The notes beneath the pieces were generated by a model. It had not been told where the DNA came from. It saw nothing but the letters and a program-made list of their open reading frames with translations, and made no database searches. This document shows positions 9,701 through 57,700 of a stretch of 64,000 nucleotides of DNA, piece after piece (the first letter of the stretch is position 1; the number at the start of each line of letters is the position of its first letter). Source of the DNA: Diploptera punctata (taxonomy: Eukaryota; Arthropoda; Insecta; Blattodea; Blaberidae); NCBI GenBank assembly GCA_030220185.1, contig JASPKZ010010272.1:4513501-4577500 (forward strand), read 5' to 3'. The position numbers and the translations under genes were made by a program.

Positions 9701-12700
9701 TTTGATGATGATAACACTGAATTCAGTCTGTAGTCCTCGTTCACAGACAAAGTGGTGCGACGAATGTATGTGGCTTTTTTTTAACCTTTAGAACAGTTGT
9801 TTTACGATGCCTAAAGAACGGACAACAGTAAAACAGTATGACAAACTGACCAATTTCATGAAAGAATTTGGTGCAACAATATTCTCCAGTGACAGTTAAA
9901 TATTGTTCTGCAAAGTGTGTAAAATTTCGGCGAATTGCACGAAGAAGTACCATGTTTTGCAGCATGTACATACTGCAAAACATAAGTATGTTCTTTGTAA
10001 AAAAAAAGGCAAAACAAGTTCCAAAATCATCTATGATATCTTCGTATGCTATTATAGCATATGTTTATATTCTTTACGTAAGGCTGTAAAAATTTATATT
10101 GTAGTCTATTTTTTGTAAGAGCCTATTTTGAATTTTTAGTGCTTATGTTAATGATTTTTTAGTGCCTCTTTGCATACCTATTTTGAACTTTTTAAGTACC
10201 TAACATCCGGACTCTATTAATCATATTTGAAGGGAAAAATTATACGCTCAGACTGGGGCTTGAACCCAAGACCTTTGGCTTTCTAGGCCAATAATCTACT
10301 GACTGAACTACCTGAGCAAGTTCCAATCTAAATGCAAAATTTTCTCTTATATACGCTGCATATATATTTTCGTCTTCAATAATTTGAACTCCAGTCAACT
10401 GCACCATTTTATAGGAGACTGTTCTGGATATGAATCAGTGAAGAAAAAGAATAACATTGAACCTAGGTCATCCAGTCTGGAGTCTGATGCCATGCCGCTT
10501 GAGTTTATTGGTCCTCTACATACATTATGAGTGTTTATAAAAAATCATGGTAAACTAAGAAATAAAATCAATAGAATACAAATATGAATCAAATTCTGAT
10601 TTATATTCGTATTCTATTATAAAGGAGTACTACATTTAGGAATAACTACAACAAAATGAAGATGTTACTTACAAGAAACTGTCATCCTGTGCACTAATTG
10701 CTGATACCCAGTGTGTAAGCCATGCTCCATCAGTGACTGATCCTTTCTTATTAACAGTTATAGGTGCGGTAGTATCCTCCAGATCCCAAAATTTGATACT
10801 GCGATCAAATGAACCTGTCATAAAGTAACGCCCATCTTCATGAGGACTAAATGAAACAGCTGCAACAAAAATATAAAATATTTTATCTTATATATATTAA
10901 AACTGGGTAAGAAACAAAAATAAAGGCAATGAATAATTTGAAAAAGCTGGATGAGATTGAAATAGAGAAAGAGGAAGACGAAACAGATACGGAAAAGAAA
11001 AATTACGGTGAATTTAAAGGAAGAAAAAATATGAGGAAGCTATACAGAATAAGACTCAGAGATATTTCTTTTTTTTTTATATGCTATGCTCCGCTAAGAG
11101 ATAAAGAAGAAGATACAGCGAGTTTCACTTGACCTGTGGCCGATAGTGGGAAAGTGACTGCAAACATTGTGTCATCAACTTGCGCTGCCCACACTAGTGA
11201 CTGCTGGTCAAGTGAAACTCATGTAGAAGAGGATAATGTCATAACTAGAGTCCGGATGTTAGGCACTTAAAAAATTCAAAATAAGCAGGCAAAAAGGCTA
11301 AAAATCACTAACATAGGCACTAAAAATTAAAAATAGGCTCTTACAAAAAATGGACAACATAACTTTTTACAGTCTTACGTTAAGAATATAAACATATGCT
11401 ATCAATAGCACACGAAGATATCTTACTTACTTACTCACTGGCACTATCGAACCCGTAGGTTCATGGCCGCACGGACATAAGCTCTCCATACATCCCTATC
11501 CTGAGCTAATGTTTTCCAATCATTCCCTGTATAATCTCTTCCCTCAAATCATAGTTAATGTTGTTCTCCCACCTCATTCTTGGTCTACCAACTGGGCGTT
11601 TTCCTTCTGGCTTTCCTACAAGAAGTTTCCATGCACGTCTTTCATTCCCCATACGTGCAACATGTCCTGCCCATCGCAGTCTACGGGACTTAACTGTTCT
11701 TATTATATCTGGCTTCCTATAAAGACCATGTAGTTCATTGTTATGTAGTCTTCTCCATTCACCTGTCTGTTCATCTCTCTTTGGTCCAAAAATTTTCCTA
11801 AGAACTTTATTCTCAAATACTCTTAATCTCCTTTCCTCCCTTAAAGTAAGAGTCCATGTTTCACACCCATACAATATAACTGGTAGAACAATAGTTTTAT
11901 ATATTTTCAGCTTAACGCTTTTTGAAAGGAGTTGGGACACACGAAGATATCATAGGTGCTTTTGGAATTTGTTTTGCCTTTTTACAAAGAGCAGAACCGT
12001 CACTTGAGAATATTTCCGTGCCAAATTCTTTCACGAAATTGGTCAGTTTGTTATTTGAGTTTGTATTCTTTAACATTTTTACCTCAAATGTTTATTCTAT
12101 TGGACGATCGTTTCAAAGCTATTGCTCCATCTTCAGCTTTTCTTAGAAGAAAAAAAAAAAAAAAAAAAAAAAAAAACAAGTTTGTGAACAAGCTGAAGAT
12201 GGAGCAATAGCTTTGAAACGATCGTCCTATAGAATAAACATATGAGGTAAGAATGTTAAAGAATACAAACTCAAATATTAAATTAAACCTCATAATGTAA
12301 CTTCCTAATGATTTTAAAATGGTCAGTTTGTATTTTACTGTCGTCTGCTCTTTAGGTATCTTAAAAAAAACTGTTCTAAAGATAAAAAAAAAGCCACATA
12401 CGCTTGCTGCACCACTTTGTCTTTGAAGCACCTGTCTGTGAATGAGGACTGCAGACTGAATTCAGTGTTACCAACATCAAAAATAATATTGCCGGTTTCA
12501 GCACCAGGTGTGAGACAAAGAAAGAAAGCTTGAGCCAAGTACCCTCTTTGTCACTCAGCAATGTTTGTATTGAAAAGAAGCAAAGAACTTTTCTCGAAGC
12601 CTTAGAGCCGGAGCATAATATAATGGGACAAAATGAGGCCAATAATTAACAATATTGGATCACCAACCTAGAAAATTTCAAAATGGCTAAATAATGAATT

Positions 12701-15700: not shown

Positions 15701-18700
15701 TAAACTGACCCAAACCCTCTGGCAGCACTATGGCCCTGGGGTCAACTCAGCCTCTAACGTAAATGAGTACCAGATGCTTGTTCTGGGGGTAAAGGCGGCC
15801 GTCACGCAGGGCTGACAACCCGGCTGACATAAAGTGCCGATTGTCTAGAAAAAGTGGGAGCCTTAACCTCCCACTACCCCAAGGGCCTCCGGGCCTGTTG
15901 TGGGATCACTTTACTTACTAGGATGATGATGAACTATATGTTTGACATCTAGCAATGAAGGCCAATGACATGAAAAAAAAAAATAAATGCCAGACTCAGG
16001 CATTTATTTTCTCTTCAAATATATTTTTTTGTCATATATATATATATATATATATGTTATGGAATTCAGAGTTTAATCAACAACTATTAGCTGAGAATGA
16101 AAGTTATGGTTTCAAAATCATATCCTGGTGAGAAAATTCATCTTATGATGTGAGAGATGTATATTTACAATTAAGTTTCAGAAGTCCTACTAGTTATCTC
16201 TAAACTGTATAAAACTATGATTAAATTAAAATGTTTCATACCTCTCCTCGTATCCAGTCTTCTAAGTAGATATGATTTCAACTTCAGTACTATCTTGTCG
16301 ATCAGGAACTACTTCTTCTTCCCTTTGTTGGTTGACCGATAAATCTCTGGATCCAATCAGAATCTGTGGAAATTTCGAAGTTCATAAGTTTTTCTTTCTT
16401 GTTTTTTTGAATGTGGATTTTTTCCCAAACTGTGAGTTATTTTAGTTTTTCTGTTTGTTTAATTAGACTGGCTTTTGATTCAATCAGATGATTTTTGGAC
16501 CAAGCATGAGCATCTAATTGAATCAAAAGCCAGTCTAATTAAACAAACAGAAAAACTAAAAGCATTCAAGGTTTGGGAAAAAATCCACATAAAAAAAAAT
16601 AAGAAAAAAGAAATTATGAACTTTGAAATTCGTGGATTCTGATTGGATCCAGAGGTTTATCGCTCCACCAACAGAAGGAAGAAGTAGTAGTTCTTCTGAT
16701 CGACATAACCTCAGTCGACAAGATAGAACTGAAGATGAAGTTGCAAAGGCTTTGAAATCGCAATCTACTTATAAGACTGGATATGAGGAGAGGTATGAAC
16801 CATTTTAATTTAATCATAAATTGAACCTCATACTGATTTATTCCTAAAAGTTCTGTATAAAACTACATTAAATAAATAATGAGAGATTACCTGATACAAC
16901 TCCTATATGAGCTTGGAAAGAATGATAAGGGTATAAATTGCTCCCATTCTTTAATAGAGGTGAATCAGTATCCATATCATAAAGAGCTACTATGCCATTT
17001 GTAAAGCCAGCAGCAATTAATCTGTAATAAAAAAAAATGTTATAAAGACACCTTATTGCTAGCAGTAAATACTAAAAGAACTCAACTACTATGAGGTAAG
17101 ATGAAAACAGACTCAATTAATTTATTAAGATGAACCTCACAGGGTGGATTTCTCAACCGAAGTCTAAACCACGACCGTGGTTTTCCAATTTTTTATTGTT
17201 TCCATAACCACCATAAAAACTGAAAATTTACGGCTGTTAATTGCAACAAAAAAATGTCTGAATCATGTCTATGGTTTCATAACAATTTCTGTAAATTTTC
17301 AGTTATTTATATAGGTATTATGGAAAAAGAAAATGGAAAACCGGGGTCGTGGTTTAGACTTCGGTTGAGAAATTAACCCATAATGTTTCCTTTTATTATA
17401 ATTTTATAGTAAATACAGCTTTCAGCCTCATGGGCTAGTGGTCAGTGTTTCTGAGGCCCTGGATTTGATTCCCAGTCAAACCATAGGAATTTTTCCTTAA
17501 AGGAAATTATTCCTGTGGTTGCACATGGTTTGGAATTTACGTTAAGAACTCTCCTCGTGCTTCATTATCATTTATCACCCATCATATCATCAGATGTCCA
17601 TCGCTGTGGTCTCGAGGTAGCATGCTGCCTTGTCACGCAGTGGGCCCGGGTTCAATCCCCGGTCGGGGCAGTTTTTCTGGGTGAGGTTTTTATCGGGGTT
17701 TTTCCTCACCTGTAAGACAAATGTCAAGAAAACTTTAAGGCCCAAATGGTCCCCGAAATCATATGGCCATCATCATCCTTCACCGGTGTGGAAAGCAACG
17801 GGAAGCTACCACACCTACAATTCCCTAGTAAAGCTGCAAAGCATAGCATGAAAATGTTATGATTGCAGTGAAGGACCTGCCTTCGGACAGAATTACTATG
17901 GATGAATATCATCGGGGTAACAAAATTCCGCCTTCTAGGCACCCCAACTTCAGAAGTGGGTTACAATTAAGCCAATGCCAGGAGAGAACACCAGAAATGT
18001 CAAAATAACAACCTGGGGCATTGAATAAAAAAATAAATAAATAAACCAGTGACAGCTCAATAACCTTCCTTACTCCTTCAGAATGTTATCATTACCTATT
18101 AAATTAATATTAAGAAACTAAAGCTATTATTATGATAAAAATAAGTAAATTAATGTACACAGGTAAGTTATTGTAATTGATGGCAAAGAGAAAAATTTCT
18201 TCCTGAATCAGGATCACACCCCAAATCTTCAGATTTACATGCTGATGCTGTGACCATTTAAAAATTATATATAACCTTCTAATCCTAGCCCAGAGATTGA
18301 AATTTTTACAATTAAAATTTCCAACTCCAATGAGAATCAAATTCAGAACTACTAATCAGGAAGCAGGAATGTTACAATATGAGCTAACATAGCAGACAAA
18401 TTGTGTAATGTGTTTACCATGTTTTTTAAATTTTTATTAAAGCAGTGATTAAGAAAAAAAAAAATTAGTACAGGCAGCAGTGTTTAGGTACAGCCTGAGT
18501 TTCTTGAAATTAATTTCACAAATGTTCGAACAATATTTTCAAATAAAATAAAAGTTCAATATTTTCAAATTTTCTTTATTTACTTCACAATATTTTACCG
18601 GATTCACATAAGTAATTTGCTGCTTTAAGAGTCTCTTCTCCACTATTTGTTTTATAAACAGTTCTTCACACTAGCTGATGGCTTATATGTAATGACATTT

Positions 18701-21700
18701 ATTTTATACATTCAGGCTATGTTAGATATAACAATTAGAAACTTAACATAAAAACTTACTTATGACCTTTGTTCTTCTGCCAGGATAATCTTGTGCATTG
18801 TGCTTGAGAATTCTCCATATCCAGAACAAGAGTGCAAATAGGTTTGATCTTAAATATTGGAATGCTGTAAAATAAGATTATTTTTATAGTATTACTTCTG
18901 CTGCAAGGTATACAAGAATTTGCAATAAAATGCATCACTTAACTTACAATGTTTACAAAAGCAGTACATGAGCTGTAAGACATGTAAAAAATTCATTATA
19001 ATTTTTCTTGATATTTGTGTGTATAAATAAATAAATAAATAAATAAATAAGTTATTAGTAGATTATCCAGACTAAATTTGTTAATCAGTGCTAATGTAAT
19101 ATCGAATTTGTTAATTATTTTTTAAAAAATTTCTGTGTGAAATTGAAGAATCGGCAATTGCAGCTCATAGTTTACTTGAGAATCACAAAATTGGAAGAGA
19201 AACTAAACTTTTAAAACATTTAGAGAACCTTTGGAATTAACAGTTTGGGAAAGTATATACATTTAGAAGATTAAATATAGAGCCATGAATTCTGATATTC
19301 CCGACGAGAATAATTAGATCTCCAAGTTCATAAAATCAAAATCAGATGGCAGTTCAGAGGATGGTGTTAACAACAAAATTTTGACAGTTGGGAGTTTGAC
19401 CAAAAATGGAATTAAATTATACTTTAGAAACCAGTATCATGAAAACAGGCAACTTTATGAGGTGAGATATAAAAATATTTTCTCCAACTCATTCATAAAT
19501 TCAAAATGAAATTAAAAATAAATAAATAAAAAAAAAGATGACTAAAACTTTCACAATATGAAGTTGTGGAGGAGAAAAATATGGTAAAAATATTATACTT
19601 ACTAAGCTCAAGTATTAGAGGTATAGCAAAGCTGTGAATGGAGCTATGAGAAATGAAAGGGGTCCAGAGTAATTCCAGAGTAATTCTGCCCGAAGGCAGG
19701 TCCTTCACAGCAATCATAGCATTTTCATGCTATGCTTGCAGCTTTACTAGGGAATTGTAGGTGTGGTAGCTTCCCGTTGCTTTCCACAACGGTGAAGGAT
19801 GATGATGGCCATATGATTTCGGGGACCGTTTGGGCCTTAAAGTTTTCCTGACATTTGTCTTACAGATGAGGAAAAACCCCAATAAAAACCTCATCCAGAA
19901 AAACTGCCCCGACTGGAGATCGAACCCGGGCCCGCTGTGTGACAAGGCAGCATGCTACCTCGAGACCACAGCGGTGGTAAACTCAATAAATGTTGTGGCT
20001 TTCAATATGGAAGAATTAACACTTTCACTCTAACATGACACATATTACCACTTTTAATTAAAAAAAAAATCCTTTACAGTCTTATATAGTAAAATAATTA
20101 AATTGAAATACTTACTTGTCTTCTGATTTACTCTTTAATTGTGATGGAAAACACACAGAAAATATGCGCACAGTGCCATCAGAACATGCAACAGCTAGAA
20201 GCCCAAGACGACGAAGTCTATCAGAAGGAATTTGCAATTCTGGAGTTTCATAACATCCTGATGGGCACCACTCCATACACCAGACAGTTCCATAATCATG
20301 TGCAATTCCCAATACAAACTTGGGGGTAGAACAGGTTCTAATAAAACAAAATATTTAAATATGTTATTAGTTTTAAATTTACTCTATTTACCTAAATATA
20401 AAATTAGTTTCATCCTACAAGAATTGAAGAGCTTATTTCCAGTGTCTTAAATCCATGAAATACTCCAGAAATCGCAATTTTTATTTTAAGGTATTTCATT
20501 TTTATTAATTAATTAATTAATTTTTTTTTGAGTCGTGAAAACAGCTGATGATGATGACAATGTGTCGCCGATACTGCAGTGCTGTGTTTAAAAAACATAG
20601 AAGTATGAGATAAGAAGAAATCACGATTCATTTAATTATTATTTCATTTTTAAATGGAGTTTTCATTATAAGTTATGTTTATTTGTAACTACATTGGCAA
20701 TAATAATTAAATGAATCGTGATTTTTTCTTACCTCATACATCTATGTTTCTTTAAACACAGATGTATGAGGTAAGAAAAAATCACGATTCATTTAATTAT
20801 TATTAATTGAACCTCATAATGTTAAAAATTCCCAAATTTAATATATAAATACATTGGCAATATTGGCACATACTCTCAAAAATCCTCCACCATTACAAGT
20901 GGTAGTAACAGTGTCACATGACTTGGAGTTAAGACGTTTTGGAAGTAAACATAGTTTAAGGAAAGTTTTAGTAGGAGAAAGTAATATCTAATACTCAATA
21001 AAGTATGCAATTTATTAAGTTTCGAAATAGTCCGTTGCCGTGGCGTAGTCGGCAGAGTCCCTACCTTCCACTCCAGCGACCTGGGTTTGATTCCCGGCGG
21101 GGTAGGGGATTTTAAATCTCCACCTTGGGTCTGGGTGTGTGTCCTGTCCATGTGTCTATATGTGAGAATAAAATAAAGTTAACAAAAAAGGTAAAACAAG
21201 AAGGAAAAACAGTGTAAACGAAAAAAAAAAAAGATGTTTACACGAAGGTATCACGATCTTTCAGAGTTCATTATCAGAAGAGTCATTTACTGCATCTGCT
21301 GCACTATTTGAAAATATATTTTGCCAGAATGGCATTGCATGATAGTGCTGGGTAATCCCTAACTTACTTAAAAAAATAATCTTGTTCTACCTTAGTTTTG
21401 TTGTTATAAAATAATGAATGGAAACAGTCTGCGGTAGAAAGCTCAGAAGTTTTACAAAATCCATCATTGTGATTACATGCCACTTTCGGTATACTTCCAT
21501 CACTAGCGTATTTATGGTGTTTATCTTTGTTTTTAGCCCACTCTGAAGGTACTAATGCTCTTTTTCTCGCTGTCTGTCCTAAATGACTTACTAGGTCTTC
21601 TTAACAACTAGCCATTTGTTTTTCACTGACAAATAAAATAATAATAAAAAAACACCACAGAAAATCATAGCTGTCGTTCATCGACATATAACAAGGAGTG

Positions 21701-27700: not shown

Positions 27701-30700
27701 AAAACTCTTTTCAAAAATTGGAATTCTTTCCATGTTCACATAAACAAGATAGAGATTAATCTTATCTAACGACTGTTTATAAATGTCCAAAAAAATTTAA
27801 TAAGGAATATTGAACTAGATGATAATAATCATACCCATTATTGTCCAAATGTCCAAAATCCCATATCTGTATCATGTTGGAGTGTGAATAACTTTGTCCG
27901 CTGATGTAAACATCTTCCATTCTTCTATGAACACTAATTGCAAGAAATTGTGCTATCCTTGTATTTTTAAAAATACTGAGCTGTAATGGAATGGAACACC
28001 AAGCCATGGCCCACACTGGTCCTCCAGCAAACATTATAGGAGTGCCTGAATAAAAAAAAAACATATCTATATTATCCATTAAAAAATAGGTTAAAATTAT
28101 ACATAATATTTTGATGTATTTTTAATTCAATGCTTTCCAATACTGGACATTATTATTTTGAAATGAAAAATTAATGCTTGAACCAGGACTTGAACCCTGG
28201 ACCTCTCATTCTATGCACGAGTATGCAATCCATTACCACCATTCAAGCTACAAATGTATTTGTGAACTACAATTCATTGCAATGGATGTGGACCAAGAGA
28301 GTAAGAAAGAGGGAGGATTTGTTCTTGGATGGGAAGGAAGCTTGAATTAGCTTAGTGGTCAGAACATCAGCACGTAAAGCTGAAGGTTGAGGATTTGATT
28401 CCTGGTCCAAGCAAAAATGTTTCTCTTTACCATTGATTATAATAATTTAGTTGTAAACATTAATTTTCTTATTTCAATCATGGCAACAGCTTTAGCTTCC
28501 TAATATTAATTTAAATATTATATTTTTTAGAATTTTAATAACAATGACAAATTAAGTAACTAGAAATATGGAAGTCACAACATATGCCTAGTCATTGCAT
28601 TGACTCTTAGATATTAAAGTAAAATATTAACCTGTATTTGAAGAGAAAAATTTTCGCCTAGACCGGGACTCGAACCCGGGACCCTTGGCTTTCCGGGCCA
28701 AGTGCTCTACCAACTGAGCTACCAAGGCAAGTTACGATCTAGACGCAAATTTTTCTCTTATGTACGTTGTAATTCCCTCGCGCCAAATGCTTGAAACCAT
28801 ACCTTCTATCTTTGCAAATGGCGGCTTCTTAGTTAAGAAGACATTTATTGGGAATTTAACACTACTTTATAGCCAGTAGGGCTTCTATTGACGATTTTAT
28901 TATTAATTTAACACTTCTCATTGAAGGATAAATTATATTTGAAGAGAAAAATTTTCGCCTAGACCGGGACTCGAACCCGGGACCCTTGGCTTTCCGGGCC
29001 AAGTGCTCTACCAACTGAGCTACCGAGGCGAGTTACGATCTAGATGCAAATTTTTCTCTTACGTACGTTGTAATTCCCTCGCGCCAAATGCTTGTTAACC
29101 TGTATGTCAGAACAGAACCAAGAAAAGTAATAATAATGCACCAAATGTAAAATTAATTAGATTCTGAGGTATAGAAATAGAAGATTACGTTTATATAACA
29201 CTTTGGCTAGACCAGTGTTGACCTACGGTAGTGAAGCATGGACACTAAAAAGACAACATGAAAGCAGAATAATGGCTTGTGAAATGAGATTCATGCGCAG
29301 AACAGCGGGTTACACCAGATGGGATCGGAAAAGGAAAACCGATATCTTAAAAGAATTGAAGACTATGCCAATTTTGGAACTAAATTGGAAATACCATCTT
29401 GAAAGAATGAGTTCAAATCGGATCCCCAAAGCTGTTTATAATTATATACCAAGAGGACGAAGATCACTGGGCTGTCCTATGAAACGCTGGAGGCAAAATT
29501 TTCTATAGGATCGTAACAGGCCTTGGCCTAATACTTGGAAGGAAAAAGAAAGAAGAAGAAATAGAAGAAGTTAATATAAGTTTTTTTTTCAATAAAATAA
29601 ATTATTATAGAATGAAAAGTAAACTGAAATACAGTATTACCCCGCTTTTACGTTTTCCCACCTTTGACAACATTTTTTAAAGGTCCCTTCAGTTTCCCTA
29701 TATTCACAATGTATTAAAAACCTCGCTTTTATGTTTTTGAAATTTTGTTTTCCCACAATTTACGTCACATCACATCAATCTCTAGCGTTAAATATCAAAG
29801 GTATTTGATTTATTTGATCGAATATCTCACTTCTGTACAATCGATATATAGCAGAGCAAGTTCAATGAGCCATCGAAGCTGGCTGCTATACAATCGATAA
29901 GGAACCAAGCAAGTTTAATGAGCCAATGAAGCTGGCTTTTGTACAATTGATAAAGAGCAGAGCATATTGATCGAGCCAACGATGTTGGCTCAGAACTTTC
30001 AAACATTTCTGAAATTCAACCCATGTACTTCTATGGCAAAACTATTTTTTTAATCTCTCAATAAAGATTCATAGTGCTGCTTGCTGAACCTCTTCTTGTT
30101 ATTTATTTTTTAAATGGTGAAAGTAAAAGAAATTAAGTAATTTTATGTTTACAGCAGTCCGAAACACACATTACATTGAACTATTATTGGAATATCACTA
30201 GGAGGTTAATTTAAAATAAAATTCTTTACACCTCACCTGATATCTTGTCTTCTAAATAAAGAGACAGGATATGAGGTGAGGTGTAAGGAATTTTATTTTA
30301 AATTAAAAGAAACATTACATTATTTAGCCAATATTGTAAATTATCCCAGTTAGTGCTTTTTTGCATGTTCTTGAATGGTTGCTCAATATGAGGGTCAACA
30401 GCTTCTCCTCAGTTCCCATAATTTACACTTTCCCCCAATTTATACCATTTTCCCTCTGGTCCCTTGAAAAGTGTAAAAGAGGGATAATACTATAGTCTAT
30501 TAGCCCCATCTGTTATGTTCATGTTCTGAAATGGATGCAGAGTATGGGGAGTTAACATTTATGAGCTTATCTTCATTTCCCTCAATTTACACTTTCCCCT
30601 ATTTTACACCATTCTTCCCACGGTCCCTTGAAAAGTGTAAAAGAGGGGTAATACTCTAATTAAAACATTTGGTCTGTTCATTATTACCTCTTAGAGTTGT

Positions 30701-36700: not shown

Positions 36701-39700
36701 GCTATTATATCGTCAACATATCTGCGCCAAAATTTGAAGGTTAATGGGTGTCCCCTTGTGATTTTCTGTTCAAAACTACCCATGAATAAATTAAAACACC
36801 ACAAGTTCCAGAAAATTTTCAATAAGTTTAACATTCGATTGGCCCCAAAGAATGAATACAGCCTAAACAAGATAATTAAAACCAACAAAATGAAAAAATT
36901 GGAGAAGAATATAAATCAGGAATATATCAGATCAAATGTCAAGATTGCGACAAAATCTATATAGGAAAAACAAAAAGAAATTTAAAAACTAGATTGAAGG
37001 AACACCTTAGAAATGTAAAAAAGGGTGAAGTGGACAAGTCAGCTGTAGCAGCCCATGCTTGGTCTGAAAAACATTTAATTGATACAGAAGCTAGCCTAAT
37101 CAAACAAACAGATAAACTAAAGGAACTCAGAGTCTGGGAAAAAATCCACATCCAAAAAAAACAAGAAAGACAAACTCATGAATTTTGAAACTCCCGCAAA
37201 TTTTGACCTGATCCTGAGGTTCATCGGTCCACTGATAGAAGTAAGAAGGAAACTGCCAAGAAACGACATAACACCGGTCGACCAGAGGCTACTGACGATG
37301 GAGATAAGCTCCAAAACTGCAGTATAGAAGAAAAAGGATATGAGGTGAGGTAATAAAAGCATTCTTACAATATTCGTTCCTTTGGCAATAAATAATAGAT
37401 CTGGTTGCAGTGACGAACAAAAGAAGCAAATGAAGCGTACTAATCATTTTTCATTTGTTTTCAAACATCGCCGTTTACATTAAATATATAAATATTTTAA
37501 AATAACTATATTTAAATAATGATTTGTGAGTGAACAGCTTAATTTTATTCGTTAAATAGTCCTAACAAATGCCACTCTTGATTTCCAAAATTCTCTAGAT
37601 AAATTGGAAATCGCTCGTGGCATTACTTATGATAAATTCCAGATTTTTTGCTATCTGGGGTGTTCAATTTCTTATTAGTTATTAATAGATTACCAAGGCT
37701 AAATTTATTTATTGGTGCCAATGTAATATTGAATTTCTTGAAAATTTTTTTAAATTTGTCATATATTTCAGGATGATATGTAATTTTCTTAAACTGTTTT
37801 CCGTTCTTTGAATCAGATTGCAGGGTAGTGTATTCTTTCAATCTTTTTTTGTTGTCTGAATTTCTTTAATTTATTTACAATTATTTCTTTTCCAAAACCA
37901 TTTAAATTGGCTATGTTCATAATGTGATTGTATTCTTTCTTAAAATCTTCTTCATTTAATGGAACATTCAATAATCTATATCAAACTGTTGAAAATTGCA
38001 TGTTTATGTGCAATATATTACAATACATATTACAAGTCCTTGAAATATTTATTCTATATTTACTAAAGTCTGGTCATACACAAAAGTTTGTAAATTAAGA
38101 TAAAAACGGAGTTTTGAGACTTACTGCACAAACTCTCAACCATACATAGAATAAAAATATTAAATATAAACAATAAAATTAAATTCAGAAAATTAAAAAT
38201 CTTTGATGAAACTGAACTATACTTACAATTGTAGAGTCCATTTAGTAGCTGGAAAGTAGGGACGATCACCAGTTACAGGTCCACTATTCTCTCTGCTCAA
38301 GAAGCGCATCCTGTTTGAAATTTCTGAAAAGGATGTATACATAATTTTTATACATTTTTTATCATCGAAAATTAAAAAAATGCATTATAATTCTGCAGTT
38401 TCCAATAGATATTTCAACCATACACCAGTATTATAGAAAACTGGATTGAAACAGAAACATAGAAGTAATGTAATATTGGGAAAAATGTCCACCATAAAGA
38501 CTAAGGTGATAGCATATTTGGTTCCTAATTAGTGTATACCTGGCAGAGTTTAAAATTTTAATACTGTATTAAGATGTGTTTCAATATTTATGAATTAAAT
38601 AAAAATAAAACGTAGTTTTATATGATTTTCGTGCTTGAAGGAGTGATGTACAATTTTTAATTATTTCAGGGATGGGGAGCTGCCGAATGAGGGGTAATAT
38701 GACATCTTCCTCATTCCACCTTTCGTCGAACTCAACATTGTTGTTATTGTCATCTTGGCATAACATGCAGTATCAGTGGCGGCACAATCTTACAACCTGA
38801 AACATATGCACTAATCCCTTCCATTCATATGTACCAAATTACATGTAACTGTGCAAATGTTTGAAGGGGGCTTAGTGGACTGCTGACACCTTTTTACACT
38901 AATTTATCTATATCAGGCTGATAGCACTCGTAGAGAGACGTAATATTGAGACAAGAGTGTCATTATATTTGAAGAGAAAAATTTTCGCCTAGACCGAGAC
39001 TCGAACCCGGGACCCTTGGCTTTCCGGGCCAAGTGCTCTACCAACTGAGCTACCAAGGCGAGTTGCGAGTCTCAGTCTAGGCGAAAATTTTTCTCTTCAA
39101 ATATAATTTATCCTTCGATGAGAAGTGTTAAATTAATAATAAAATCGTCAATAGAAGCCCTACTGGTTATAAAGTAGTGTTAAATTCCCAATAAATGTCT
39201 TCTTAACCAAGAAGCCGCCATTTGCAAAGATAGAAGCTTAGGTTTCAAGCATTTGGCGCGAGGGAATTACAACGTATATAAGAGAAAAATTTGCGTCTAG
39301 ATCGCAACTCGCCTCGGTAGCTCAGTTGGTAGAGCACTTGGCCCGGAAAGCCAAGGGTCCCGGGTTCGAGTCTCGGTCTAGGCGAAAATTTTTCTCTTCA
39401 AATATAATTTATCCTTCAATGAGAAGTGTTAAATTAATAATAAAATCGTCAAGAGTGTCATTGTTTAATCTGGAGCTTATTTTAGATTTGGTATGATTTC
39501 TCAGCAATCAATTTTAAAATCTGGTAACTAGCACGTACTGAATTCTCTGAAAGTGGTTGTCTGCTATCATTTTGGAGTGTTAGATTATTTAAAAGTTCCA
39601 TCCTGTCATCCCTTGTGTAAACAAAACGTACAATGTCCCGTAGGGCTATTATATTCAATTTATGAATTTGAACTCCATGGATGTTACCTACTGTACTTTA

Positions 39701-45700: not shown

Positions 45701-48700
45701 TACTAATAAAAAGATCAATGTCCCAGATAGTAAGAAATCTGGAATTTAAGTTGGAATTTGGAAACTTGTACTGAAGAACATTTTAGAAATATTAAAAATT
45801 GTGGGGAAATTGAAAAATCTGCAATTACTGCACATAGTTTACTAGACATCATAAAATTGGAAAAGAAACATTTAAAACAATTGGATAAACATATTTGGTT
45901 CGTCTTCCGGGCTTATAGGTCGTGGTCTGGTTGTCTTCATACTCGACGTTTCGTCTACTGCTGCGGTAGACCTCATCAGGAGATACTGCGTGCTCTCTGT
46001 GAACTCCTCAACAGTCGGCTGCAGACTGGCTGGTCATTGGAAACTATCTCTCTATTTATAGGTAAACCCCGGATGGTGGGAGGGTTTTCTTCGCGGTCCG
46101 AGTTTTGTGCCGTTTGCAGAAGTCATAGGCTTCGTTGTCATGTTATGGATCCCAGCACTGCATAACACGACAACAAAGCCTATGACTTCTGCAAACGGCA
46201 CAAAAACAGCACAAAACTTGGACTGCGCAGAAAACCCTCCCACCACTCGGGGTTTAACTATAAATAGAGAGATAGTTTTCAACGACCAGCCAGTCTGCAG
46301 CCGACTGTTGAGGAGTTCACAGAGAGCATGCAGTATCTCCTGATGAGGTCTATCGCAGCAGTAGATGAAACGTCGAGTATGAAGACAACTGGACCATGGC
46401 CTATAAGCCCGGAAGATGAACCAAATATGGATCAAGATGCCGGCCATGATAGCCTACAATTATATATAATTGGATAAACCTTTAGAACTGACAATTTGGG
46501 AGAAGATATACATTCAGAAGAATATATATATATATATATATATATATAGATCGATGAACTTTGATATTCCCAACAAACAAAATTTAATTTCAAAGCTTAT
46601 AAATTCAACCGTAGATGGCAGCACAGAATATGTTGATAATAGAGAAGTTGATGGCCAAAGAATTTTATCAGCCGGAGTTGTGACTGATGATGGACGAGAT
46701 GTCGTCTGAAACCATGGTCTCGTGAAAAGCACGAAATATATGAGTTTCAAAATATTTTCTTGATAAATATTAAATGATTATTACCTTATAATGTTTACTT
46801 CCCAACATTAATTTTAAATTAAATTTGAGTTGTTTTTGACTCACCTCATATTTCTTGATTTTTATGCAGACCTAGGTTTCATTGCTAAACGTCGCGACAT
46901 TCTCGATGCCACTATGTTGCGGAGTTTAGCAACGAAACTTAGGTCTGCAAAAAAATCAAGCAATATGAGGTGAGTCAAAACCAACTCAAATTTAATTAAA
47001 ATAAACCTCATAGTTAATTAAATTAATATTGAGAAGCTAAAGCTATCATTATGATAGAAATAAGTAAATTAATGAACACAATTAAATTATTATAAATTAA
47101 TGGTAAAGAGAAACATTTTTTTTTGTCTGGATTAGCTCAGTGGACAGAGCGTTAGCATGGAAAGCTAAAGGTTCGGAATTTGATTTCCGGTTCAGGCAAA
47201 AAATTTTCTCTTTACCATTGATTTATAAACCTCATAGTGTTATTTCCAACATATATTAAATTAATTTTAAATCTTTTTATTATTGATTTAACATTTCTCA
47301 CTGAAAGATAAATTATATTTGAAGAGAAAAATTCTCGCCTAGACCGAGACTCGAACCCGGGACCCTTGGCTTTCCGGGCCAAGTGCTCAGTTGGTAGAGC
47401 ACTTGGCCCGGAAAGCCAAGGGACCCGGGTTCGAGTCTCGGTCTAGGCAAGAATTTTTCTCTTCAAATATAATTTTAAATCTCCCTAAACACATTCAGAT
47501 GAGAGGAATATATTTTATGAGGTGAGATGTAAAGTTTCCAATTCATATTTTCATTTACTGATGATTACCTCACAATGTCATTTCCCATTAATTTTTAATA
47601 AACAGCAAATTAAATTTTCAAGTTACAAAAGATCTGTATGTTATCCCACCAAACTCTTATAATAAACACATATATATATAACAACAATCAAATGAATCAT
47701 GAATTCTTCTTACCTCATACATTTATGTTTTTTAACACAAAACAGCAGTATCGGGAAATACATCATTCCCATCTTCAGCTGAGTCATGAAAAGAGCTGAA
47801 AATGGAAATTATGTATTTCCCGATACTGCAATTCTGTGTTAAAAAACATAGATGTATGAGGTAAGAAGGATTCACAATTCATTTGATTCTTATTAAGAAA
47901 AAGAAAACCTCATAATGTAAAAAATTCCCAAATTTATTATATTAACATATGTATAATTTTAACCTTATAGGAATTAATACTATGAGTTATATATTAAATT
48001 CAAGATAATTTTATCACCTCACCTAATACTCCATCTTCTAACAAATTAGATAAAGTTTCTCTTAAATTTACACATATATAATTTTATAAAGAAAATATCA
48101 TAAACTAGGTGGCCACAAGGACCATTCGTGAATCTGTAAAGCACTGCATAATGGAAATACAATAATTGTATAAAAAGTGTAAATTTTATTTATCAACTGT
48201 CCTTATTTCCCATAAATTAATAATAAACCTTCTTAATAAAATTAAAATGAGTTATTCATTTCACCTCATACACTCTGTGTTCTTTACAACACAAGAATAA
48301 TTGTTCCTACCTTCAGCCAACTTTACGACTGCTGACTTCATGCCTTCACCATCATCTTTTAAACTACCATCTAGTGTTGAATTGATGAACTTTGAGATAA
48401 AATTTTATTTCTCCCTTTTTTCCTTTAGAAATCAAACCTTGTTCACCAGGAATTTCAAAATTCATGGATCTAAATTTGTTTTATTTTTATACTTGAAGAG
48501 AAAAATTATACGCTCTGATGGGGGTTTGAACCCAAGACCTTTGGCTTTCTAGGCCAATGCTCTACCACTGAGCTACCTGAGGAACTCCAATCTAAATGCA
48601 AATTCTTCTCTTATACACTGTTAATTCCCGATCACAGATACATTTTTTGGCTAAATGTATATCTTTTCCCAAACTCTTAAACATATTTAGATCCATGAAT

Positions 48701-51700
48701 TTTGAAATTCCCGGCAAGCAAGATTTGATCTCAAACTTCCTCAAATCTACACCAGATGGCAGTTTGGAAGATGATGGTGAAGGCATAAAGTCAACAGTCG
48801 TAAAGATGGATGATTACAAGAATGATTATTCCTGAAACCGTGGTCATGTGCTGTAAAGAATACTGAGTGTACAAGGTGAGATGAATAACGACTCACTTTA
48901 ATTTTATTAATTTGAAAGCCTCATAATGTTAATTGTGATCATACGTTTTATGAAATAATAAACCTTCTATTCGTATCTGGTATAAAATAGATTGAGGAAT
49001 GAGATGAGTTGAAGCTGCTATTAATGAAGGTCTATTATATATATATATATATACATACGGTGGACACTGCTTAATTCAACATTTGATAATTCGAATATAA
49101 GTACAATCCCCTTGAAACTCCTATTTAAAATAATGTTAAAAATACATGTATAATTTGACATTTTGAAGCCAACATTTGGATAATTCGAAGCCACAATTCC
49201 ATTTATTGATAATGTAAAGCGTAATCTGAATTCTATAAAAGTTGAAAAATTCCAAGAATTCATCTAGTACCCACATTCCTAGTTGCTTATTGTTAAAGTC
49301 CTGTTAGATGGCAAGCGAACAGGACTGTATTGTCCAGTGCTTTGTGTTGTCGGGTACAGTACAGACACCCACCCCTCACTCATATCCCAAAAACTGAGAA
49401 TAATGCATATACCCTCCCTTACTTTTACTGTACAGGTATACATTTATACATAGAGTACAGTACAGTTAATAACTTCAGTCAGTACAAATCTATTAGTGAC
49501 TCGATTCGCAATATCAAAACGCGGAGAGTACACCAGTTTAACATCGGCAAAATAAAGTTGAAATATTTAGGGAAGTAGAAAAAGGAACAAAGAATAAGTG
49601 TGATATTGCCAAGGAATATGGCATACTGCTGAACACTTTATCCACCTACATAAAGACTAAAGAAAATATAATAGAGAGTTGGAACGTACAAAGTGGTGGA
49701 AGTAGGAAACACATAAGAGGAGGTGAATTTCCTGAAGTTGATGAATGTGTGTTCAAATAATTGCGTGATCGTAACATACCACTGAGTGGCCCATTAGTGT
49801 GTGCCAAGGCCGAAGAATTTGCGGAAAAGTTGGTACGAATTGAATGAATCGTGAATTCTTCTTAACTCGTACGTCTATGATTTTTAAACACAGCACTGCA
49901 GTATCAGCGACTATCGTCAGGTCGTGAAAACAGCTGAGGATGGTGACGATGGTCGCTGATACTGCAGTGCTGTGTTTAAAAAAACATAGAAGTATGAGGT
50001 AAGAAGAATTCACGATTCATTCAATTCTTATTAATAAAACCTCAATGTTAAACATTCCCAAATTTATTACATTAAAAGAAAAGTTGGTGTTAAAAATTTT
50101 AAAGCAAGTGGAGGTCGGTTCAATGTTTTCAGAAAAGAAATGGCATTTCATTTAAAAATGTGTGCGGTGAGAGTGCTTCAGTTAATAGGGAAACAACTAA
50201 TGAGTGGATTAATGGATTACTGAATTCACAAGGAATTATGAATCAAAAGATATCTTTAATGTGGATAAAACTGGACTTTTCTTCAAGTGTATGCCTAACA
50301 AAACATTCACTTTTAAGGGGGAGTAGTCTTGTACTGAAGTGATTTAATCTTGTGTCAAACTACTAGGACTGCACATTTTATGACAAAATATGGAAATTAA
50401 AAGGTGAGTTACAAAGCATGTTAATTGCAGTATTTGCATGAAATAAATTTATTTCAGGGTACAGTACTATGTAAAATAAAGTGTCTCTTATTGATTCAAA
50501 GTTTCGATAATTCAAATTTTTAAAAATTCCCCCTTGAGTTCGAATTAAAAAGTGTCCACTATACATATTAGGGTGTCCCAAAAAAATCAAAGTCTTTTAT
50601 TTTTAACGTATACCTTCTTAATTTATTTGTATAAAGCTAAAACAATTGTAAGTACAATTTAATGTATGTAGGCCCACAGCAACCCATGCCAATTTGCTTC
50701 GAAACATGTCAATACTTGCAAACTTTGAAAAGAAAATTTGAACAATTGTTTTTTATTGTAAAAGAGTAAATAGTTATATGTTCTGGGCATATTGATATTT
50801 TATTTACTAAATAAAATGTTAGTTCTAGAACCCTTCTATACTAACCCAGTGCAAATTTTCATGTCTTATGTTTGCATGAAGTCGGCACGGGTTGTCAAGG
50901 ATCCAATCACAATAATATTTATTAATTAAATAAAAATAAAACGTAGTTTTATTTGATTTTCATATTTATTATATAATTCAGTGACAGCTGTTTCGGTACA
51001 CTGTACCTTCTTCAGACATGTTAACAAATTATTCATAATTCACCAACTCAATTGATTATTATACAATAATATTTGTTATTCGAGTTATTGAGGTCAAATA
51101 GGAAAAAAAAAAAAAAAAGAAGAAGAAGAAAGAAAGAATAAGAAAGAAACAAAAAAAGAAAGAAAGAAAGAAAAGAGGGAATACGTATTTGACATTACGA
51201 AAAAACCTCCTTTATGTCTTGGGTCACCCTAATACATACATATATATTATATATATATATATATATTCTTCTTCCTCTATGCATGAAAACTTGTTGCATG
51301 TTCATTCATTCATTCATATATATAATGTATATGGGTTCAGAGCACTTTTCAAATAGGAGATTAAAATTACCATCTCATGACTTCACAAGTGAATTAGTGA
51401 AATAGGATCCTTGTATCCAAAAAATCAAAGCTGATTAAAATGTCACTCAGTGACTTGCAGATGACAGTAAAGGCAATTAAGTAGATACAATTATAATACC
51501 TAACAAATACTGAATGAATTACCTTCTTAGGTGCAAGAGGACAATTAGTGAAATGCTCAATAATAGCTTCAAATGAATCAGCACTATATGTACAGCCAAC
51601 ATGACGGCAGTGAGCTTTGCCACTATTAATCAAGGAGCGTTTCCATGCTCCACGTGCATAGTTACTTATATCCACACCTCCAACAGATTTATACAATTCA

Positions 51701-54700: not shown

Positions 54701-57700
54701 GAACAAAAGTGAGAATACAAAGTTTAGTCTAATAAATATATGAAGGCACTTAAGTCATCCTGAAAACAGATTTTGTCTTTCCAGCGAGAAGCAGACTTTG
54801 AGGTTTGAACAACTGGCATCAATTTTTTAATTACATCATCCTTGGAGAAAAATGATTCTTCATCAGTCAAGGAAAACATATTACTGCTGAGGGTTTTCTT
54901 GCAAAACAGTCCAACATAACCGTCATCTTGAAAGTCAGTGACTTTGGAGACATACATTCTAAATACATTTTTAGTTTTTCCATATACCTTCACGATTACA
55001 AAATCGTCAGGTTGGATTAATCTGTCAAGTTCTTTTGAAAGTTCGGCATTTGCAGAAGAATCGGATAATGTGAGATCTGAGTCACTGTCTTGCACAGAAT
55101 AGTCCGAATCTTCTGGTGATGATAGAAACAGCAAAATAATGTGTTTCTATTCACCCCACAGATTCAAAATATGGATCATAACCTAAAACAAAAATTGAAA
55201 CAAAGAAATGGTTTTGTTTACACTATATTAAACAATGTGATATCTTCTACAGGTATACAAGGTATAAAAAATAGTACAATTCAAACATGTGAGGTGATGA
55301 GGTATGGTACTTACATGTAAAGTTTGGAAAACGATGAAAATCGGCTGAAACAGAAGTTGCTTTGTCACACCACTGAATCTGAATCTCAGTATTGCCAACC
55401 ACACAAAATCACATTTCCCTTAAATCTTACCTTATTTCCATCTCATAAAAAAAAATATCCCTGTCTGCTTTACTTTAACCCCCTATTACATAATGTTGAA
55501 TTTTTTCAGAAGTTTCGTTTCTATTCACCCCACTGTTGCTATTCACCCCATTTTACGGTAATTGTATGAAGTGAGATTAATAATTTATCCAACTCACTTT
55601 TTGAATTGTGAATTGCTTCATAATGTTAATTGTAAGTTTGTGGCATATAACACTAGATAACTTACTAGTACGTGACTTAAAATTTAACTTATTATTACAT
55701 CAGACTCCATCAAATTATTTTTAACTCCTGGTCCCTTTGAGATCCCACTCTGAAACTTTCAGGTATTAATAGTTTATAGCAGTACTGAAAACACATATTT
55801 TTCTCAAAATTAAATTAAAAAAGTGTCCCAGTTCTTTTTTAAGTTTCTTCTTCCCTTCTTATTCAAAATTTGTAGGATTTTCATCATGTTTAATTCCAAA
55901 ATCACTCCTCGGATGAAGACATATTGGATGTGCATCCACTGTCTATCCATCTCTTGGCAGTCTTCCTCTTGTTCTTCTCCTGTCCATCGGTCTATCTTCT
56001 TTAGCTCTTTTTGCAAGTCGGTTATCTTCCATTCTTTCTATATGACATTTCCAATATTTTCGTATATCTATAATAAATGTTATGTCTTGAATATGACATT
56101 TGTCTCTAATTTCTGTGATGTGTATCTTATCAAATAATGTTCTCCCCTGAATAGTTCTTAACATCTTCATTTCACATGTGCTTATTATTTTTAAACATTA
56201 AATTTGGGAATTTTTAACATTATGAGGTTCAATTCATAAGAATTAAATGAATCGTGTTTTCTTCTTACCTCATATTTCTATGTTTTTTTAAACACAGCAC
56301 TGCAGTATCAGCGACCATTGTCATCACCTCAGCTGTTTTCACAACTGTCAATTTTTTCTTTTGCCGGTAATTATCCAAACTGCCACCTGGTGTTCAGTTT
56401 GGATAATTACCAGCAAAAGAAAAAATTGACAGTCGTGAAAACAGCTGAGGATGGTGACAATGGTCGCTGATACTGCAGTGCTGTGTTTAAAAAAACATAG
56501 AAGTATGCGGTAAGAAGAAATCACGATTCATTTAATTCTTATGCTTATTATTTGTTTAGTTTTTGTTGTATCAGCCCTAGTTTCTGCTCCATATACGATA
56601 ACTGGTCAAACTATTGTTTTGTATATGCGGATTTTACTTTCTATTGACATGTTTGTTGTGCCAAATTAAATCTTTCATATATCCTGATATTTGTGCTGCT
56701 TTATTAGCTTGTTTTAAGTTTCTCATTTTCCTAATTTTTTTTATTTTAATAAATATAGTTAAGTAGCATATCAAATTAAATTTGAAATTCCCTTTAAAAT
56801 GAGGTGTAAAATAAACTTGTAGGACTAACAAAGTCTGAGCTATTCAAGATTGAAAATGTTAGTGCACAGGATTAATCTTAAAAATTAATCTCATCAACAC
56901 CTAGAAATATACAATTTTTCTAAAATATATATTAATTTAGATTTTAGAGGATAAAAGCTGAGATGGTTAATGTTAGTGAGTGGTTAATTTTGCATTAATG
57001 ACCTAGCAGAAAAAACTAAACTTAACTTACCAAAATTTCTTCTTTTTCCTCAACTGCTTCGCCATCTCCGATGAACTCCTGCATGAGTGTCACAGCTCTG
57101 TAGAAATATTACACCACAGTTACTAGTTACATCATGGAAATAGACAAACAAATCTGGCATACTGATCTCTGATGAGTAACAATGTAATCTATAGTAATCA
57201 ATGGTAAAGAAAAACATTTTTCAATGTTAACATTATTCGTTTTTAAACATTTTAATGATGGACAAAATATATTTGAAAAGAAAAATACACGCCTAGACTG
57301 GGGTTTGAACCCAGGACCTTTGACTCTCTATGTCAATACAACGAATAATATTAACATTGAAAGAAGCACTACTGGCTTTATAAGTAATGTTTAAATTCCC
57401 AATAAAAAGTCTTCTTAATACAGAAGCGCCATTTGCAAAACTCGTAGCATTTGGGGTTAGGGAATTAACTATGTGTAAGAGAAAAATACGCGTTTCGATT
57501 GGAGGCCTAGTTAGCTCAGAAGGAAGAGCATTGACATAGAGAGTCAAAGGTCCTGGATTCAAACCCAAGTCTACGCGTATATTTTTCTTTTCAAATAAAA
57601 ACATTTTTCGATGTTTTTATTATTAATTTCATACATCTCAATGATGGATAAATCATATTTAAAGAGAAAAATTATACGCTCAGACCGGGACTTGAACCCG

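What the first reader, a model, noticed from the sequence alone, without database searches (positions are those of the whole stretch)
12052..56541. A family of foldback elements with one hammerhead ribozyme on each strand
At least seven loci (12052-12319, 34333-34613, 45891-46467, 47690-47945, 49835-50077, 33076-33754, 56191-56541) share one plan: inverted arms ending outward in GAGGT(A/G)AG, a hammerhead or variant core in each arm facing the centre, a tail on one side only, and, where I could define them, TSDs of 11-15 bp. Hammerheads in PLE terminal repeats are established; a dominant head-to-head, ribozyme-bearing, non-coding form with clean TSDs is not something I know as described. Inference: these are PLE-mobilised non-autonomous units made by copying two RNAs or by template switching.
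Basis: partly seen in the sequence, partly recalled or inferred. Interest (0 to 1): 0.9.

Follow-up and report, generated by a model that had tools for sequence, protein, structure and literature searches.

The report
Two-sided Penelope retrotransposon insertion scars
The mirror-image repeats in this cockroach-like DNA look like scars left when a Penelope-type jumping gene copies its RNA into both cut strands of the target at once, and in the sampled tail-bearing copies such two-sided scars are the usual outcome.

Summary
The foldbacks are real. All seven named loci are inverted repeats and six have 11-16 bp TSDs. Genome-wide the form dominates among tail-bearing PLE 3' ends: 45 of the first 52 are head-to-head, and in 100 listed arm hits all 21 neighbour pairs within 2 kb are head-to-head. 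TSD scores of 10 or more: 30/44 against 2/865 permuted. The ribozyme is incidental: a core on both strands in 3 of 7 named loci and 19 of 44 sampled ones. These are 5'-truncated Penelope-like element copies, not a dedicated non-coding unit. One arm starts at fixed site p, the other at q about 43 nt further 3'. Arms end independently (left longer 11, right longer 13, equal 4 of 28) and often meet at microhomology. This fits reverse transcription primed from both cut strands at two internal sites, shown in vitro for an Anolis PLE (PMC11167929), and argues against self-priming (PMC3846280). Inverted PLE copies with a one-sided tail and TSDs are published; new here are the scale, the mechanism test, and tRNA-bearing repeats with a similar plan.

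The parts
12052..12319 (+). PLE foldback, tail at right; hammerhead core in both arms; TSD TGGTCAGTTTGT
34333..34612 (+). PLE foldback of family F2, arms 99% identical, tail at right; core in both arms; TSD ATATATAAATTCTGTT
45891..46468 (+). Foldback of a different PLE family (other tail); core in both arms; TSD ATTGGATAAAC
   Evidence: a similar copy lies nested in L038 (by reading)
47679..47945 (+). Foldback, tail at right, core reads GATA in both arms; no clean TSD found
49835..50077 (+). Foldback of family F3, tail at right, no GAAA core; TSD GAAAAGTTGGT
33076..33754 (-). Foldback of family F3, tail at low-coordinate end; TSD 13 bp
56191..56541 (-). Foldback of family F3, tail at low-coordinate end; TSD 12 bp
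16218..16852 (+). Further PLE foldback, TSD CTGTATAAAACTA
20703..20850 (+). Further PLE foldback with short arms, TSD ACATTGGCAATA
35629..37358 (-). Long PLE foldback, arms about 570 nt, 541 nt between arms, TSD 13 bp
48234..48953 (+). Further PLE foldback with a tRNA-bearing repeat between its arms, TSD AATAATAAACCTTCT
51873..52036 (-). Further F2-type foldback, TSD 13 bp
30724..33029 (-). Composite foldback: tRNA-bearing repeat units outside, PLE with GIY-YIG ORF at centre, TSD GTATGTTTCAGA
31715..32290 (+). PLE ORF fragment with GIY-YIG endonuclease domain (PF01541)
   Evidence: best homologue annotated Diploptera punctata
2298..2720 (.). tRNA-bearing inverted repeat, TSD TTGCCACACTAT
38965..39449 (+). 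tRNA-bearing foldback with one-sided tail, TSD CAAGAGTGTCATT
8328..9184 (-). tRNA-bearing foldback with one-sided tail, TSD AACATTAGAGTT
28638..29094 (-). Two direct (not inverted) tRNA-bearing units flanked by TSD TTAACCTGTAT
57609..58082 (+). tRNA-bearing foldback, TSD AAAAACATTTTT

Best explanation
The foldbacks are 5'-truncated insertions of several Penelope-like retrotransposon families. The element's protein cuts both strands of the target about 12 bp apart. Both 3' ends prime reverse transcription of element RNA at two fixed internal sites: one strand at p, the other at q about 43 nt further 3'. The stretch between them is the one-sided tail. Each antisense cDNA runs towards the RNA 5' end and stops independently. 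The two cDNA 3' ends join, often at 3 or more matching nt, and filling in gives TSD - antisense arm - sense arm - tail - TSD. Shown here from sequence: fixed p and q, one tail, TSDs, independent arm ends, microhomology, arms from the same subfamily. Inferred: both-strand cutting and priming in this species (shown in vitro only for an Anolis PLE), the annealing step, and the identity of the enzyme. The hammerhead just upstream of p is copied as a passenger.
For: (1) By script p lies 5-7 nt before ACCTC in 26 of 44 sampled foldbacks, and 0 of 44 left arms carry the tail. (2) Tailed ends facing each other within 2 kb: 0 among 100 listed places (one such pair at 3.9 kb), although arm motifs do so in 21 pairs. 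(3) TSD score 10 or more in 30 of 44 against 2 of 865 permuted. (4) Arm reach is independent: left longer 11, right longer 13, within 3 nt 4, of 28 F1 foldbacks. (5) Junction overlap of 3 or more nt in 11 of 26 against 6.0% simulated, 5 or more in 8 of 26 against 0.9% (2 junctions with nested inserts dropped; observed overlaps are BLAST ends, simulated ones exact). (6) A graded series of right arms down to nothing: L068 tail only, L058 about 21 nt of tail, L056 about 9 nt of tail, and L055, L057, L061, L063 with no right arm, all with end repeats of 9-14 nt (no permuted control for these). (7) PMC11167929 (parts 1 and 2 of 4 read): the PAc protein cleaves and extends both strands, starts at two internal RNA sites, and the 30-40 bp genomic tail is the stretch between them. 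(8) 52 of 56 F1 arms reach upstream of the hammerhead cleavage site (24 of them past the whole motif) and 2 end within 2 nt of it, so most templates were uncleaved, as in that paper.
Against: In vitro the two start sites showed no strand bias, whereas here each resolved two-sided insertion uses p on one side and q on the other; nothing here explains that pairing. Tailed arms carrying a G three nt from p pair with T-bearing tail-less arms in 5 of 5 checkable cases, so the two arms are not always copied from the same letters. The 52-place sample was picked by the tail, so p-only insertions are missed there by construction; in the arm-motif sample 4 of 18 unassigned loci were p-only. 14 of 44 foldbacks lack a TSD scoring 10 or more, and 18 of 44 have p outside 5-7 by script (some, by reading, because TSD letters were drawn into the alignment). 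F2 reach was not counted, for want of a close reference. Only one genome was available.
Confidence: 0.82

Rival explanations
1. Self-priming: one cDNA or one antisense transcript folds back on itself and is copied, giving a head-to-head repeat (proposed for Adineta Penelope in PMC3846280).
For: Palindromes and microhomology at some centres; arms of one element share a subfamily marker, 20 of 21 against a permuted mean of 7.5.
Against: The copy cannot be longer than its template, yet the tail-less arm is longer by more than 3 nt in 11 of 28 (L028 444 against 265). A copy of the tail-less arm could not contain the tail, and a full copy of the tailed arm would carry it on both sides.
Confidence: 0.06
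2. Template switching or twin priming on a single RNA, as in LINE-1 5' inversions.
For: Uses both target strands and one RNA; arms come from the same subfamily.
Against: In classical twin priming (recalled, not looked up) the two parts do not overlap on the RNA; here they overlap over the whole shorter arm. A strand-displacing version on one RNA is not excluded and would be a sub-case of the best explanation.
Confidence: 0.08
3. The foldback is itself a mobile unit, transcribed whole and inserted as a ribozyme-bearing non-coding element.
For: Large copy number (12,293 exact module hits); L004/L027 and L003/L035 share junction positions.
Against: Arm lengths and junctions differ among most of the 28 F1 copies; the pairs sharing a junction carry different subfamily letters, so recurrent microhomology explains them better. 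No promoter at p was looked for.
Confidence: 0.03
4. Assembly artefact or DNA foldback transposon (MITE-like).
For: Inverted repeats are a known artefact of long reads (recalled).
Against: TSDs, PLE coding sequence upstream of the module, asymmetric ends, graded truncation.
Confidence: 0.01

Closest known systems
Endonuclease-bearing Penelope elements of Adineta vaga (PMC3846280; passages found by search)
   Same: GIY-YIG element, inverted pLTRs, head-to-head as the most frequent inverted arrangement, optional 31-bp tail on one of them, TSDs of 8-10 bp, palindromes at the inverted junction, mobilisation of unrelated DNA between pLTRs in trans
   Different: There the inverted copies mostly flank ORFs and were explained by self-priming on antisense RNA; here short foldbacks dominate the tail-bearing sample, TSDs are mostly about 12 bp, and arm lengths argue against self-priming
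PAc / Poseidon of Anolis carolinensis (PMC11167929; parts 1 and 2 of 4 read)
   Same: Two internal RT start sites, tail between them, both target strands cleaved and extended, hammerhead near the start sites and not needed for insertion in vitro
   Different: In vitro work; the parts read report no head-to-head genomic products and no fixed pairing of start sites to strands
Metazoan retrozymes (PMC7229834; parts 1 and 2 of 6 read)
   Same: Non-coding repeats with type I hammerheads in animals
   Different: Direct tandem repeats with canonical hammerheads; here neighbours are head-to-head and the cores have a short stem III (by reading), as reported for PLEs
Tail-sharing SINEs and their LINE partners (general knowledge; cockroach SINEs in PMC9191728, passages seen)
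   Same: tRNA-headed repeats whose 3' end resembles an autonomous element
   Different: Here the shared terminus is that of a PLE, and the repeats occur as foldbacks with a one-sided tail

Membership tests
Penelope-like elements (EN+) | GIY-YIG endonuclease domain | tested here: met
   PF01541, E 3.3e-08, window 31715-32287; EN-like frames, judged by eye, directly upstream of the module at 13.7 and 60.7 kb
Penelope-like elements (EN+) | Telomerase-type reverse transcriptase | tested here: inconclusive
   Frame at 36184-36888 shows YVDD, but Pfam gave no family for it
Penelope-like elements (EN+) | One-sided tail of 30-40 nt and TSDs | tested here: met
Penelope-like elements (EN+) | Tandem or partial-tandem copies (pLTRs) | tested here: inconclusive
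   Among 100 listed tailed ends, 5 neighbouring same-strand pairs are 2.7-3.3 kb apart; not examined further
Hammerhead ribozyme, PLE type | Core CTGANGA / stem II / GAAA with paired stem II | tested here: met
   59 of 60 stem II pairs across 12 families chosen for having the core, register set by eye, 10 of 12 with GAAA; no Rfam hit
Hammerhead ribozyme, PLE type | Self-cleavage | not testable with these tools
   needs RNA
Metazoan retrozyme | Direct tandem repeats | tested here: not met
   0 same-strand against 21 head-to-head neighbours within 2 kb among 100 listed arms
Foldback / MITE DNA transposon | Symmetric terminal inverted repeats | tested here: not met
   Tail on one side only, 0 of 44 left arms tailed
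PLE-dependent SINE (for the tRNA repeats) | tRNA head plus 3' terminus shared with the autonomous partner | tested here: inconclusive
   CTTCCCAATATTAATTTAA shared with the F2 PLE terminus (read by eye); partner not proven

The most novel reading that the evidence does not exclude
PLE integration in this cockroach is by rule two-sided: a dimeric enzyme loads one target strand on site p and the other on site q, using two template units (two RNAs or one tandem transcript), and the same machinery inserts tRNA-bearing, SINE-like repeats, including head-to-head arrays of 326-bp units. That would make two-strand target-primed reverse transcription a main route, and give a PLE-dependent SINE, of which the paper listings showed no example.
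Probability: 0.4. Interest if true: 0.8.

Novelty: new variant of a known kind. Interest (0 to 1): 0.62.

Why it matters
How Penelope-like elements integrate is unsettled, and known inverted copies were put down to self-priming (PMC3846280). Thousands of closely similar insertions in one genome record both cDNA start points, both end points and the target cut, so the route can be read from sequence and tested against the in vitro enzyme. If the tRNA repeats are confirmed, PLEs would join LINEs as helpers of SINE-like elements.

Tried and rejected
Rfam hammerhead models: no hit in the window, also at E up to 5; the many microRNA-family hits there are only hairpins (my judgement). One exact canonical hammerhead pattern (stem II GTCC/GGAC, 7-nt loop) has 0 matches genome-wide. 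Self-priming, template switching, foldback as a mobile unit, artefact and MITE: see rivals. Idea that ribozyme cleavage sets the arm ends: 2 of 56 F1 arms end within 2 nt of the cleavage site, so no. Idea that left arms start unfaithfully at p: mismatch 1/88 at 1-2 nt, 10/176 at 3-6 nt, 17/616 and 21/880 further in, but 40/880 at 41-60 nt; not convincing. Idea that the PLE at 31-32 kb is the partner of the neighbouring tRNA repeat because 164 of 166 nt match: the junction occurs 5 times in the genome, 2 of them in the window, so I take it as a rare chimaera. The count of tailed T arms did not complete, either as a 60-letter pattern or as a 43-letter one, so the 10 against 101 G counts lack their yardstick. 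Papers: in the listings I saw no title or abstract start on a genome-wide head-to-head PLE survey or a PLE-mobilised SINE; subscription papers are mostly not in that library, one relevant paper (PMC8557442) is not held, and the passages on Penelope seen in PMC12910113 did not treat this.
Full report
Setting. The window lies in a 3.12-Gb assembly of 10,165 contigs. A GIY-YIG frame from it matches a protein annotated as Diploptera punctata at 86% identity, so it is most likely this cockroach or a relative; the source is otherwise unnamed. The window holds PLE fragments, a broken piggyBac-type transposase and 21 tRNA-like hits.

Observation. Inverted-repeat search gives 52 pairs with arms of 40 nt or more within 1.5 kb, 25 of them shown. 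Six of the seven named loci are among those shown; the seventh was read. Eleven window foldbacks have TSDs located by exact match, six of the seven named loci among them; the exception is 47.7 kb. Of 22 tail-motif positions scanned by script, nine gave a clean foldback with TSD (12287, 16825, 20811, 34577, 48918, -56228, -51911, -35668, -33114): the left arm starts 5-9 nt before ACCTCATAATG in eight and 19 nt before it in one (-35668), and the TSD begins 28-40 nt after the start of ACCTC. The other 13 gave no clean pair in that script, some because a neighbouring repeat captured the alignment; 47.7 kb and 49.8 kb were judged by reading.

The module. Above the tail, in sense orientation, lie the end of an EN-like reading frame (by eye), the hammerhead, ATGAGGTRAG and 28-58 nt. 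The pattern ATGAGGTRAG-N28-58-ACCTCATAATGTTWACTTCCC has 12,293 exact matches in the genome and none for the reversed control. The first 52 places of the listing were examined in loci L001-L050. Of these, 44 have an inverted partner within 1.45 kb (alignment score 100 or more) and L031 has one at 1.95 kb: 45 of 52. Of the other seven, L024 and L032 read as single 5'-truncated copies with TSDs (by eye); the other five were not resolved. TSD scores of 10 or more: 30 of 44 against 2 of 865 when flanks are permuted; the commonest score is 12 (17 of 44). By script p is at 5-7 nt before ACCTC in 26 of 44; reading the flanks shows that several other values come from TSD letters drawn into the alignment. 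No left arm carries the tail. The sample was chosen by the tail, so insertions without q are not in it.

Orientation. A 42-nt arm motif has 6,982 exact matches. In the 100 listed, all 21 neighbour pairs within 2 kb are head-to-head; none is tail-to-tail or direct. Among 100 listed tailed ends, none faces another within 2 kb; one pair does at 3.9 kb. Of 63 exact arms on contigs C1-C8, 26 are tailed, 17 are tail-less with a tailed partner, and 20 were unassigned. The 18 loci holding those 20 were fetched. L053, L066 and L067 are ordinary foldbacks, L059 is tailed and L065 is a nested case. L054, L056, L058 and L068 have short or nearly absent right arms, and L055, L057, L061 and L063 have no right arm, with end repeats of 9-14 nt. 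L051, L052, L060, L062 and L064 were not resolved by the script within the letters held, though L062 and L052 show arms facing each other.

Arms. In the 28 F1 foldbacks the two arms end independently: left longer by more than 3 nt in 11, right in 13, equal within 3 in 4. The centre is mostly a direct junction with short overlap: 3 or more nt in 11 of 26 against 6.0% for random end points (two junctions with nested inserts dropped). Both arms carry the same five-letter subfamily marker in 20 of 21 elements where both cover it, permuted mean 7.5, maximum 17. So two cDNAs are made from template of the same source and joined. A copy cannot outrun its template, and a tail cannot be copied from a tail-less arm; this argues against the self-priming model of PMC3846280 for these copies.

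Mechanism. PMC11167929 shows for an Anolis PLE that both target strands are cut and extended, that reverse transcription starts at two adjacent internal RNA sites, and that the genomic tail is the stretch between them. The foldbacks are what this chemistry predicts in the genome if both strands are used at one site. Not reported in the parts I read is that each insertion pairs p on one strand with q on the other.

Ribozyme. Across twelve families picked for having the core, stem II pairs in 59 of 60 positions (permuted mean 39.2, maximum 55; register chosen by eye). Two of the twelve have lost GAAA. In F1 the core begins 106 nt and the cleavage site lies 70 nt before ACCTC; of 56 arms 24 reach 125 nt or more, 28 end at 73-124, 2 at 68-72, 2 below. 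A core, by regular expression, is found on both strands in 19, one strand in 17, neither in 8 of 44. The ribozyme is therefore a passenger of the insertion, and most templates were not cleaved.

Beyond the finding. Seven tRNA-bearing repeats of the window were tested at boundaries set by eye, without a permuted control: six are flanked by TSDs of 11-13 bp, five of these six being inverted and one (28.6 kb) a direct pair; the seventh (5.7 kb) ends in a TA repeat and is unclear. By reading, several have one-sided tails. One tRNA family has 1,728 exact junction matches; in the 100 listed, neighbours within 1 kb are 11 head-to-head, 0 tail-to-tail and 18 same-strand, mostly 326 bp apart. Its 3' terminus shares CTTCCCAATATTAATTTAA with the F2 PLE terminus (by eye). 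I take these as likely users of the same machinery, not proven.

Open point. Tailed arms with a G three nt from p meet T-bearing tail-less arms in 5 of 5 cases that could be checked (L021, L033, L062, C7:3646981, C42:313404; listings are capped at 100 places). Genome counts are 101 tailed G and 10 tail-less G, against 1,356 tail-less T in the same form; the tailed-T count was not obtained. A pair of templates, such as two units of one tandem transcript, would explain it.

Noticed in passing
30724-33029: Composite foldback with arms of 248 and 632 nt, 98-100% complementary: tRNA-bearing units outside, PLE with a GIY-YIG frame at the centre, TSD GTATGTTTCAGA. Its PLE/tRNA-repeat junction occurs 5 times in the genome.
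   Followed up: yes
2298-2720, 5791-6264, 8328-9184, 28638-29094, 38965-39449, 57609-58082: tRNA-bearing repeats, 20 of 21 window hits read as Ser and one as Gly by ARAGORN under its bacterial setting, flanked by short direct repeats (5791-6264 unclear), several with one-sided tails like the PLE foldbacks.
   Followed up: partly
G000 C33:1317189-1319023, C13:1875831-1877088: Head-to-head arrays in which several tRNA-bearing units, mostly 326 bp apart, face several in the other direction.
   Followed up: partly
L021, L033, L062, C7:3646981, C42:313404: A G three nt from p in the tailed arm meets a T in the tail-less arm in 5 of 5 checkable cases.
   Followed up: partly
40257-42086: Broken piggyBac-type transposase (DDE_Tnp_1_7) in two open pieces.
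   Followed up: no
32200-32330 and 46880-46950: Possible hammerhead relatives; in the first C3 and G8 both differ (U and A), as if the tertiary pair had changed on both sides; read by eye only.
   Followed up: no
one search list, C1:213202/215929, C3:2086489/2089292, C3:2711084/2713942: Same-strand tailed ends 2.7-2.9 kb apart, perhaps tandem full-length PLE copies.
   Followed up: no
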